64,000 nucleotides of DNA from Flavobacterium litorale (GTDB lineage: Bacteria; Bacteroidota; Bacteroidia; Flavobacteriales; Flavobacteriaceae), in contig NZ_CP080429.1 in NCBI RefSeq assembly GCF_019613795.1, positions 339,501 to 403,500 on the forward strand. The letters run 5' to 3'. The notes under the pieces were generated by a model. The model was not told the DNA's origin. It did no database searches and saw nothing but the letters and a program-made list of their open reading frames with translations. Made by a program: the position numbers and the translations under genes. Shown here in pieces: positions 10,106 to 17,416 of the stretch (the stretch's first letter is position 1; every line of letters begins with the position of its first letter).

Positions 10106-11377
10106 ATGATTTACACCTCTTACCGATTTTTTAAAATAGTTGTACTATTTTTATTAGTATCTGTTGTTGCCAATGCACAAGTGCAGCAGGAAATACCACC
10201 TCCGTATCATATAAAAACCGTTTCGTTTAGGAAGAACAACGAAAATGTGTACCCTTATTTCAGAAAAGGGGAGTCATTCCAATTGACTTTTGACGATTTA
10301 TATGGCAACGAGGCAAATTACTATTATTCAATTACACACTGTAATTACAACTGGACACCATCATCGCAACTTACCATTAACGATTATATTAGTGGGTTTG
10401 ATAACCAACGCATACAAATTTACGAGAACTCATTTAATACCCTACAAATTTACTCGCATTACACCTTAACAATACCCAATCAGTTTACGCGCCTATTGCT
10501 ATCGGGCAACTACATCCTAAAAATATTAGACGAAGATCGTGAGGTAGTTTTTACACGCCGTTTTATTGTTTACGAAGAGTTGGTAAGTGTACCATTGCAA
10601 ATAAAGCGTGCTAGGGGCATGGATGAAATTAACGAAAAACACAACCTCGACTTCAGTATAAAATCGAGTACTATCAATTTCCAAATGCCATTACAAAACG
10701 TAAAAGTAGCATTATTCCAAAATGGGAGGTTCGATAATGCTATTTACAACGTTAAACCCCAATATACTATAGGAAACGACCTTATTTACAGATACGATAA
10801 AGAAACGCAGTTTTGGGCAGGTAACGAGTATTTATTTTTTGATAATAAAGATGTTCGTAATGCCGTAAATAACGTACTCCGAATTACGGCGGGCGAAGTA
10901 TATAATAACATACTTTATGTAAACGAAGCTAGGGCAAATGTGCCCTATACCTACTTTCCCGATATTAACGGTAAATTTTTAGTAAACAACATTAACCTCA
11001 ATGTAACCAACGTTGCAGTAGAGGCGGATTATGCCTGGATATTCTTTTCCCTAAGTGCCCCAGCCTACTACTCTAAAAAAGACATTTATGTTTGTGGTAT
11101 GTTTAACAACTATGCTAAAACGGAAGAAAACAGAATGGAGTACAACGAGAAAACTGCCACGTACGAAAAGGCCATTATGATAAAACAAGGGTTTACCAAT
11201 TACATGTACATCCCATCGGATAAAAACGGGGTATTGGATGAGAAAAATGCACCCGATGGCAACTTCTTCCAAACAGAGAATGATTATACGATATTGGTAT
11301 ACTACCGTGAAAATAACGACCGATATGATAGGGTTATTGGTATAGGGTCGGCAAATTCCGAAAACATTATCAATTAA
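10106..11377 (+). CDS. type IX secretion system plug protein (DUF5103)
   Basis: A 423-residue secreted protein with a signal peptide ending near VVANAQ (about residue 25). It has the DUF5103 architecture of beta-sandwich domains, with conserved stretches such as YYYSITHCNYNWTPS and YISGFDNQRI, and a C-terminal CBM-like region (YVCGMFNNYAKTEENRMEY). The F. johnsoniae homologue was identified structurally as the Plug that seals the periplasmic side of the SprA translocon. It lies directly upstream of apaG and pruA. Confidence 0.87.
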   Translation: MIYTSYRFFKIVVLFLLVSVVANAQVQQEIPPPYHIKTVSFRKNNENVYPYFRKGESFQLTFDDLYGNEANYYYSITHCNYNWTPSSQLTINDYISGFDNQRIQIYENSFNTLQIYSHYTLTIPNQFTRLLLSGNYILKILDEDREVVFTRRFIVYEELVSVPLQIKRARGMDEINEKHNLDFSIKSSTINFQMPLQNVKVALFQNGRFDNAIYNVKPQYTIGNDLIYRYDKETQFWAGNEYLFFDNKDVRNAVNNVLRITAGEVYNNILYVNEARANVPYTYFPDINGKFLVNNINLNVTNVAVEADYAWIFFSLSAPAYYSKKDIYVCGMFNNYAKTEENRMEYNEKTATYEKAIMIKQGFTNYMYIPSDKNGVLDEKNAPDGNFFQTENDYTILVYYRENNDRYDRVIGIGSANSENIIN

Positions 11378-11440
11378 CAGTCAATTCGTTAAAAATCAGT
11401 TGCATTTAAATTAATATTTGAAATATAAAGGGACTCTATT

Positions 11441-11456
11441 TAATTTTGTACCTTTG
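11441..11456 (+). promoter_or_regulatory. Overlapping -7 boxes upstream of apaG
   Basis: Two adjacent TAnnTTTG matches, TAATTTTG (11441-11448) and TACCTTTG (11449-11456), lie 25-40 bp before the ATG of apaG. Either could be used. Confidence 0.5.
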
Positions 11457-11480
11457 AGAAAGTTATAAGGATTTATTTTT

Positions 11481-11867
11481 ATGGTATCACAAATAACACG
11501 AGGCATTAAAATATCTGTTTCCACTAGTTTTGAAGGCACGTACTTTAAAAACTACAGAATACAGTTTGCCTTTAGCTACGAGATTACTATAGAAAATCAG
11601 AGTAAAGACTCTGTACAACTCAACACACGCCATTGGGAAATTTTCGACTCGTTAAACGATATCGAAATGGTAGATGGCGAAGGGGTTATTGGTAAAAAAC
11701 CAGTGTTAAAACCAGGCGAAAAACACACCTATAGTTCGGGTTGTTTGCTAACTTCGCCCTTTGGAGCCATGCGTGGTTATTTTAATATGGTAAACTTTAC
11801 TTCTACCCGTTCTTTTAAAGTAATAGTACCCACTTTTAGGCTTAGCGCACCTTTTGCGTTAAATTAA
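11481..11867 (+). CDS. apaG: ApaG domain protein
   Basis: The 128 residues match the ApaG family length, an immunoglobulin-like fold. The conserved core includes FAFSYEITIENQSKDSVQL, RHWEIFDSLNDIEMVDGEGVIGKKPVLKPGE and SGCLLTSPFGAMRGYF. ApaG is linked to Co2+/Mg2+ homeostasis in enteric bacteria, but its biochemical role is unclear. It has its own promoter region and sits between the plug gene and pruA. Confidence 0.93.
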   Translation: MVSQITRGIKISVSTSFEGTYFKNYRIQFAFSYEITIENQSKDSVQLNTRHWEIFDSLNDIEMVDGEGVIGKKPVLKPGEKHTYSSGCLLTSPFGAMRGYFNMVNFTSTRSFKVIVPTFRLSAPFALN

Positions 11868-16906: not shown

Positions 16907-17416
16907 TTCCCCTCCTTTGGAGGGGTGTCTGTAAAGACGGGGTGGTTATGGAACAAGAAATTTTAACCTATATTAAAGGTAAACCCATATACAGAAACTT
17001 CGTTAAAAACTTGCCTTACAATCCTAATTTGAAAATAAGGGCTAAAAATCTGCGCAAAGCAGGCAACTATCCCGAAGTAGTATTTTGGCAACAAGTACAC
17101 AAAAGAAAATTTTATACTATCGATTTTGACAGGCAACGCATTATAGGAAACTATATCGTCGATTTTTATGTTAAGGCGTTGGGTTTAATCATAGAAATCG
17201 ATGGCACAAGTCATAACAATAAAGAATCTTACGATACCAAAAGGGAGAACTATTTGTGCACCTTATTAGGTTTGGAGGTTTATCGTATTTCCAGCATACG
17301 CATATTACATGATTTAGAAAATGTAATGACCGAACTGGAAAATTTCATTATTAAGCATTTTGGATAAGAATTAATAGCCCACCCCACCCTACGGGCACCC
17401 CTCCAAAAGAGGGGAA
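16907..17416 (+). mobile_element. Candidate compact mobile element: DUF559 nuclease between inverted repeats
   Basis: About 39-40 bp at each end (16907-16945 and 17377-17416) are imperfect inverted copies beginning TTCCCCTC and sharing TTTGGAGGGGTG, at roughly 80% identity by eye with one gap. Each arm contains a smaller palindrome (CCCCTC..GAGGGG). The nuclease ATG lies 2 bp after the left arm and its stop is 9 bp before the right arm, so the unit is almost entirely gene plus ends. No clear target-site duplication was found. Mobility is inferred. Confidence 0.55.
16948..17367 (+). CDS. DUF559 domain endonuclease-like protein
   Basis: A 139-residue protein of the DUF559 family, related to Vsr and PD-(D/E)XK nucleases. 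Family features are the N-terminal RNFVKNLPYNPNLKIRAKNL, the early glutamate in YPEVVFWQQV, the core IVDFYVKALGLIIEIDG with its Asp and Glu-x-Asp residues, SHNNKESYDTKRENYL, and the closing region LGLEVYRISS. The family's cellular role is not established. An in-frame GTG at 16942 lies inside the left repeat; the ATG at 16948 is preferred. No promoter box is seen, so it may be read through from the aminotransferase gene or from the repeat. Confidence 0.82.
   Translation: MEQEILTYIKGKPIYRNFVKNLPYNPNLKIRAKNLRKAGNYPEVVFWQQVHKRKFYTIDFDRQRIIGNYIVDFYVKALGLIIEIDGTSHNNKESYDTKRENYLCTLLGLEVYRISSIRILHDLENVMTELENFIIKHFG

What the first reader, a model, noticed from the sequence alone, without database searches (positions are those of the whole stretch)
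16907..17416. DUF559 nuclease gene packaged between inverted repeats: a possible minimal selfish element
The nuclease gene is bracketed almost exactly by imperfect 39-40 bp inverted repeats, each holding its own palindrome. The start codon follows the left arm by 2 bp and the stop precedes the right arm by 9 bp. The unit lies 17 bp after an aminotransferase stop and leaves the purT promoter untouched, as expected of an element that inserts into safe intergenic sites. DUF559 proteins relate to Vsr-like nucleases, so the enzyme could cut or mark its own ends. No transposase is present.
Basis: partly seen in the sequence, partly recalled or inferred. Interest (0 to 1): 0.72.

Follow-up and report, generated by a model that had tools for sequence, protein, structure and literature searches.

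The report
Nuclease gene between triplex-forming repeats
A small nuclease gene sits between two mirror-image DNA repeats that could each fold into a triple helix, and related gene-plus-repeat packages appear to have moved between sites in other bacteria, even into the middle of essential genes, which suggests an unrecognised, transposase-free kind of mobile element.

Summary
Confirmed and extended. The DUF559 gene (16948-17367) lies between two inward-facing arms (16907-16945, 17379-17416), the only two matches of the arm pattern in its genome. Each arm is a hairpin (CCCCTCC/GGAGGGG), a second small stem, and a third tract (GGGGTGG) that mirrors the purine strand: an intrastrand-triplex motif like the published PIT/BoxC/TM repeats. 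42 of 45 loci (44 relatives and the window) have such an arm; in four samples triplex-type motifs are 7 to 228 times denser beside DUF559 genes than further off. Left and right arms co-vary (0 of 5000 permutations).

The unit moves. Relatives hold gene-less arm pairs; 44 loci fall into 17 context groups; 11 of 12 sampled aminotransferase-purT junctions lack it. The same genome has a second cassette in frame inside leucyl-tRNA synthetase, and RecG in Flavivirga has empty, full and arms-only alleles at one position. Others sit in IleS and MetH.

Shown: a recurring unit present or absent at fixed sites, gene under purifying selection, no transposase inside. Inferred: that the nuclease acts on the folded arms (REP/RAYT-like logic) or homes on empty sites. 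No binding, cutting or movement was tested. My searches found no paper linking DUF559 to triplex repeats.

The parts
16907..16945 (+). Left arm: TT + hairpin CCCCTCC (16909-16915) / GGAGGGG (16919-16925), spacer with small stem (16926-16938), third tract GGGGTGG (16939-16945)
16948..17367 (+). DUF559 (Vsr/EDxHD-like) nuclease gene, 139 aa from ATG
   Evidence: PF04480 84.4 bits; model and fold matches; dN/dS 0.05-0.18 in 8 of 10 pairs of the family
17379..17416 (-). Right arm, inverted copy: third tract (17379-17385), spacer stem, hairpin ending at 17414, then AA

Best explanation
The DUF559 gene and its two arms are one small mobile unit. Each arm could fold, as single-stranded DNA, into a hairpin whose purine strand is covered by a third strand (purine-motif intrastrand triplex). 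Shown here by comparison: the unit recurs, is present or absent at otherwise conserved sites, related cassettes sit in frame in essential genes with arms at many of their edges, arms-only forms exist, and the gene is under purifying selection. Inferred: the Vsr/EDxHD-like nuclease recognises the folded arms, probably when single-stranded during replication, nicks beside them and so drives copying of what lies between them, much as RAYT transposases are thought to serve REP/REPIN repeats but with an unrelated enzyme. Gene-less arm pairs would be its non-autonomous copies.
For: 42 of 45 loci have an inward arm, 26 have both; left and right arms of one element co-vary (0 of 5000 permutations); sharp outer edge WTT. 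Motif density near v far 228-, 27-, 7- and 28-fold in four samples. Third tract fits the mirror rule better than the direct rule in 140 hairpins, worse in 22, tie in 184 (sums of unique near hairpins). Spacer stems keep pairing. Gene-less inward pairs of about 100-120 bp with the same two arm types as the gene-bearing copy. 17 contexts among 44 loci. Cassettes in LeuS, RecG, IleS, MetH; RecG empty, full and arms-only forms in Flavivirga. 8 of 9 arm-set genomes without a Y1 transposase domain still have arms. In 249 Flavobacteriaceae genomes 20 of 25 with the pattern have a DUF559 hit, against 68 of 224 without.
Against: No binding, nicking or movement was tested. No target-site duplication was seen. 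Presence/absence does not by itself tell insertion from loss. Orientation differs: inward here, outward in the coding-gene cassettes and mixed in other samples. 5 of 25 pattern-bearing genomes have no DUF559 hit. E. coli ycjD has one triplex motif about 170 bp downstream, not a bracketing pair. The strict scan near genes finds almost as many direct-order as mirror-order hits, so it alone does not prove the mirror rule. Related arms are not independent, so the sign counts overstate certainty.
Confidence: 0.6

Rival explanations
1. Homing-type element: the nuclease cuts empty target sites and the unit is copied in by repair; the arms are edges or harmless linkers, not the enzyme's substrate.
For: Second-best solved relative by sequence profile and fold is the catalytic domain of the homing endonuclease I-Bth0305I. 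Cassettes share the same LeuS position in many Flavobacteriaceae loci and the same RecG position in several genera. One paper calls a DUF559 gene an EDxHD homing endonuclease (passage, PMC9403480).
Against: Does not explain dispersed gene-less arms, co-variation of left and right arms, or the mirror rule. No splicing (Hint) domain is among the precomputed Pfam domains of the LeuS proteins listed, so host genes are protected only by the reading frame. 17 contexts rather than one target.
Confidence: 0.2
2. Passenger: another enzyme (RAYT, IS transposase or recombination) spreads the arms and the DUF559 gene is carried along.
For: Y1 transposase domains occur in 26 of 35 of these genomes, the window's own included. 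Chryseobacterium genomes hold many arms unlike those beside their DUF559 gene.
Against: 9 of 35 genomes show no Y1 domain, among them G314 with 14 and G325 with 9 arm matches; G314 is a MAG and may be incomplete. No arm-type motif beside the window genome's Y1 gene. DUF559-arm association holds in Bacteroidota, Pseudomonadota and plasmid/phage samples. Other transposase families were not surveyed.
Confidence: 0.1
3. Host repair gene: DUF559 is a Vsr-like repair or structure-processing nuclease and the arms are regulatory or structural hairpins of the locus.
For: Vsr-like fold; Caulobacter VsrA, a DUF559 protein, causes SOS induction when its partner methylase is missing (passages of PMC12907096); purifying selection.
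Against: In-frame insertion in four unrelated genes and present/absent forms within one genus are not expected of a fixed repair gene. PMC4666352 states, citing earlier work, that PIT elements of E. coli showed no promoter or terminator activity (introduction).
Confidence: 0.07

Closest known systems
PIT / BoxC / TM intrastrand-triplex repeats (Holder et al. 2015, PMC4666352; introduction part 1, one methods section with Table 1, one results section and term passages seen)
   Same: Pyrimidine tract, purine tract, mirror third tract in that order (class II); dispersed, intergenic, often in inverted A/B pairs; presence varies between strains
   Different: Described without a cognate gene: 0 mentions of DUF559, endonuclease or Vsr in the main text. 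Arms here have a stem in the second loop and flank a nuclease gene
REP/REPIN repeats with RAYT (TnpA_REP) genes
   Same: Gene flanked by inverted palindromic repeats, gene-less paired copies elsewhere, repeats matched to the gene's lineage
   Different: Enzyme is a Vsr/EDxHD-fold nuclease, not a Y1 HUH enzyme; arms carry a triplex third tract and no GTAG foot
EDxHD homing endonucleases such as I-Bth0305I
   Different: No intron or intein and no extra DNA-binding region in the 139-aa protein; bracketed by repeats; dispersed gene-less copies
DUF559 proteins described so far (E. coli YcjD, Caulobacter VsrA, Neisseria NGO0050/3hrl)
   Same: Same family and fold
   Different: In what I read they are treated as repair or unknown proteins; flanking triplex motifs are not mentioned

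Membership tests
DUF559 (PF04480) | Pfam model over its gathering score | tested here: met
   84.4 v 20.6 bits
Vsr/EDxHD-fold nucleases | Fold similarity to Vsr and I-Bth0305I | tested here: met
Vsr/EDxHD-fold nucleases | Nuclease activity | not testable with these tools
   Invariant acidic and His residues E43, D72, E83, H89, D96; role inferred
PIT/BoxC/TM intrastrand triplex repeats | Y tract, R tract, third tract mirroring R with T or A over A | tested here: met
   Window arms: CCCCTCC, GGAGGGG, GGGGTGG; CCCCTCT, GGAGGGG, GGGGTGG; mirror better 140, worse 22, tie 184 near DUF559 genes
PIT/BoxC/TM intrastrand triplex repeats | Triplex forms as DNA | not testable with these tools
   Shown for an E. 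coli motif in PMC4666352 (abstract); not for these arms
REP/RAYT | Y1 HUH transposase in the unit | tested here: not met
   The unit's only gene matches DUF559 and MTES_1575, not Y1_Tnp; the genome's Y1 hit is at C1:779406, far away
REP/RAYT | GTAG or CGTC foot at the palindrome (recalled, and abstract of PMC3733652) | tested here: not met
   Edges read TTCCCC and GGGGTGGTT; conserved edge WTT
REP/RAYT | Gene-less paired copies dispersed in the genome | tested here: met
   In relatives such as G309; not in the window's own genome
Homing endonuclease gene | Sits in a self-splicing intron or intein, or cuts the empty site | tested here: inconclusive
   No Hint domain in the precomputed Pfam lists of LeuS proteins; Rfam at gathering level finds only two tRNAs in the window; cutting not testable
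Classical IS/MITE | Target-site duplication | tested here: inconclusive
   None evident at one E. coli site; Chryseobacterium intergenic sites too diverged

The most novel reading that the evidence does not exclude
A categorically new class of transposase-free mobile element: a Vsr/EDxHD-type nuclease that recognises intrastrand DNA triplexes as its ends, spreads itself and gene-less triplex repeats (including the long-orphaned PIT/BoxC/TM repeats) through bacteria of several phyla, and can invade essential genes in frame because its arms can be read as tolerated linkers.
Probability: 0.45. Interest if true: 0.92.

Novelty: new variant of a known kind. Interest (0 to 1): 0.82.

Why it matters
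Triplex-motif repeats have been known in E. coli since the 1990s (introduction of PMC4666352) and were tied to genome instability with the mechanism left unclear. Linking them to one nuclease family would give a testable mover, a reason for their presence/absence variation, and a role for DUF559. It would be the first case I know of (recalled, not searched) in which triplex DNA marks the ends of a mobile element; and the cassettes in LeuS, RecG, IleS and MetH show that such units can sit in essential genes without a splicing domain.

Tried and rejected
Tried and failed or weak. (1) Empty sites between Chryseobacterium species: genes align, intergenic DNA too diverged for exact edges. (2) Empty site of a solo arm in G317: only repeats matched. 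(4) Left-right covariation was first run on 13 pairs (3 of 2000 permutations); a fuller extraction gave 26 pairs, reported here. (5) Viral contigs: 4 pattern stretches, no relative; phages 3 records, plasmids 22, none of the ten plasmid genera named is of Bacteroidota. (6) PF04480 over 14 control genomes rang in Caulobacter and Corynebacterium only, so not in the control E. coli genome, whose strain is not named; the E. coli evidence rests on tblastn and on RefSeq annotation of ycjD, and many E. coli genomes lack the gene.

Considered and rejected: chance repeat; a conserved element of one locus; RAYT as the only mover; intein (no Hint domain in the lists); plain terminators (gene-less copies, mirror rule).

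Rows dropped: L021, L078, L255, L276 left out because the open frame from the match is long; 17 of the 25 plasmid/phage records were fetched. The 34 genomes were chosen for holding the gene, so arms there are partly built in; 3 of 34 had no match (one, G334, has a variant the pattern misses, L034). L037 was not held. In one search the reversed-pattern control also matched once each in 3 of 249 genomes. The 120 LeuS proteins listed were scored over the insert, so that all carry it says nothing about frequency. The 6-base scan of the 21 coding cassettes had no shuffle control; over the 7.7-kb leuS stretch it marks three places, all at the cassette edges. One search matched 14,181 papers on general words and is uninformative.

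Full report
What is there. In the window a 139-residue DUF559 gene (16948-17367; PF04480 at 84.4 bits) lies between two inverted arms. The arm pattern occurs twice in the window and, in the whole 2.73-Mb genome, only there. Neighbours are a class I/II aminotransferase and purT.

Anatomy of an arm. Read inwards, an arm is TTCCCCTCC-loop-GGAGGGG-spacer-GGGGTGG. The first two tracts form a hairpin. The last tract is the mirror image of the purine strand with T facing A, the rule of a purine-motif intrastrand triplex as set out in the introduction of PMC4666352. Over unique hairpins near DUF559 genes in four samples, the downstream third tract fits the mirror rule better than the direct rule in 55, 25, 21 and 39 cases, worse in 5, 2, 4 and 11, with 63, 30, 24 and 67 ties. 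Arms with other purine strands have a matching third tract, for example GGAGGAG with GAGGTGG (L007) and GGGAGAAGGG with GGGATGAGGG (L278). The spacer usually forms a stem: 75 distinct spacers of 8 bases or more average 4.96 pairs, against 3.71 with 3' halves swapped (maximum 4.19 in 200 rounds). Related arms are not independent, so these numbers are descriptive.

The unit recurs. A genome-contig search gave 44 relatives, mostly Bacteroidota. With the window, 42 of 45 loci have at least one inward arm of the searched forms close to the gene, 38 on the left, 30 on the right, 26 on both sides. Each left arm resembles its own right arm (mean 6.1 edits) more than others (11.6; 0 of 5000 permutations). 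Outside the hairpin, conservation over 58 arms stops after three bases: T 58, T 54, A or T 57. More distant DUF559 genes have other arm sequences of the same layout. Triplex-motif densities near (within 300 bp) and far (over 700 bp) were 2.79 and 0.01 per kb in 43 Bacteroidota loci, 4.46 and 0.16 in 28 Flavobacteriaceae loci, 3.78 and 0.53 in 16 plasmid or phage loci, and 4.66 and 0.16 in 29 Pseudomonadota loci; loci with a near motif were 36 of 43, 26 of 28, 11 of 16 and 26 of 29 (ratios). In 249 Flavobacteriaceae genomes this arm pattern is in 25 (reversed control in 3); 20 of the 25 have a DUF559 hit, against 68 of the other 224 (odds ratio 9.2).

The unit moves between intergenic sites. 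Flanking genes sort 44 loci into 17 context groups. The window's junction holds the element also in F. salilacus (L005) and F. cyanobacteriorum (L009); in F. subsaxonicum (L006) and in L014 it lies elsewhere in the same neighbourhood. Of 30 purT loci fetched from 61 genomes of the genus, 12 show the aminotransferase beside purT, and only the window's own has a DUF559 hit or this arm pattern. In Chryseobacterium one junction carries the element in either orientation (L020 and L045 against L026 and L035). In 34 genomes chosen for holding the gene, the arm pattern is found 204 times in 31 genomes, up to 27 per genome, with 0 control matches. G309 (F. subsaxonicum) has inward gene-less pairs of about 100, 101 and 119 bp, made of the two arm types that flank its gene-bearing copy, with small changes.

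The unit enters coding genes. The other DUF559 domain of the window's genome lies in frame inside leucyl-tRNA synthetase (TIGR00396). Query residues 292 and 446 align to residues 236 and 237 of the solved LeuS 1h3n, so 153 residues sit between two neighbouring positions; another extra stretch, 145-203, has no DUF559 match. Triplex motifs of another sequence lie at both ends of the DUF559 insert, facing outwards. DUF559 cassettes also interrupt RecG (421/574 against 515/519 of 1gm5), IleS (636/781 against 534/541 of 8c8w) and MetH (425/559 against 766/772 of 9ssp). Of 21 such loci examined, 6-base triplex motifs mark both edges in 8, one edge in 9, none in 4. Among the 120 RecG proteins listed as nearest to that of Flavivirga eckloniae by the part after the insert, 18 are of cassette length, 95 of ordinary length and 7 other. 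Within Flavivirga, at 93-96% identity over that part, RecG exists in an empty form (for example P0248, WKKNTSPPHILV), a full cassette form (P0241, P0242, P0251), a form with both translated arms but no nuclease (P0244), and a shorter remnant (P0249). This is the clearest present/absent comparison in the work; it is at protein level, and that P0244 derives from a full cassette is inferred.

Link to known repeats. Arms of several Pseudomonadota DUF559 genes match the published TM layout. A Sinorhizobium megaplasmid whose DUF559 gene is bracketed by such arms has 39 motif copies, five of them in '-/+' pairs at a constant 105-bp offset, control 0. In E. coli K-12, ycjD, annotated DUF559, has a motif of the sequence and approximate position of TM number 9 in Holder's Table 1 about 170 bp downstream and none on the other side in the 6.4-kb stretch; a rough chance estimate is 0.004. 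3333 of 5426 E. coli genomes hold at least 80% of the ycjD block; one genome of the others that I opened has an efflux operon there, as PMC12817139 reports for whole phylogroups (passages). At hrpB-mrcB an inward pair present in MG1655 is absent from two strains fetched and reduced to one palindrome in a third; 13 of 40 evenly spaced rows have the short form. Gain and loss cannot be told apart there.

How it most likely works. Shown: the unit and its presence/absence at fixed sites. Inferred: the nuclease reads the folded arm. Co-variation of left and right arms, matching changes in stems and third tract, and gene-less copies fit an enzyme that recognises the arm's shape on one strand, as RAYTs do with REP hairpins. 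Homing, with cutting of empty sites, is the main rival and may apply to the LeuS and RecG cassettes. Y1 transposases do not seem needed for arms to be present: 9 of 35 genomes show no Y1 domain, 8 of these have arm matches, two of them 14 and 9.

Novelty. Of the 14 papers in the library that hold the word DUF559 (listing only), none is about repeats by title. Holder et al. have 0 mentions of DUF559, endonuclease or Vsr in the main text. Searches for DUF559 with inverted repeats, REP, palindromes, and for intrastrand triplex, PIT elements and ycjD showed no such link in their listings (40 of 59 papers listed). PMC9403480 notes a DUF559 gene as an EDxHD homing endonuclease among inteins (passage), a partial precedent. 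Most subscription papers and all bioRxiv preprints were out of reach. I file it as a new variant (repeat plus cognate gene, as in REP/RAYT) because the mechanism is untested; a new class remains the bold reading.

Noticed in passing
G000:C1:1178403-1178729 (outside the window; L306): Second DUF559 of the genome lies in frame inside leuS with outward-facing triplex arms at both ends.
   Followed up: yes
   Followed up: no
L190, L193, L303-L305 (G309): Outside several arms of this genome a further stretch resembling CAATCGTGGC recurs: a longer arm or a preferred target.
   Followed up: no
L187:16810-16911, 11327-11482 and 1512-1603: A second, longer dispersed repeat family in Chryseobacterium, unlike the arms, with many matches in G335 and G340.
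   Followed up: no
L259 (Photobacterium pGJ3-1): Downstream of a DUF559 gene, about a dozen triplex motifs alternate in orientation over 1.1 kb.
   Followed up: no
L249, L256, L262, L263 (cyanobacterial plasmids): DUF559 genes beside DUF1156, DUF499 or PglX (BREX-like) genes.
   Followed up: no
L109, upstream of purT: By eye, the aminotransferase-purT junction of this relative holds other triplex-like C/G-rich hairpins without a DUF559 gene.
   Followed up: no
L008 (record titled Bifidobacterium breve MAG): Its flanking genes match those of the Flavobacteriaceae loci L007, L011 and L012, so the record is probably mislabelled or contaminated.
   Followed up: no
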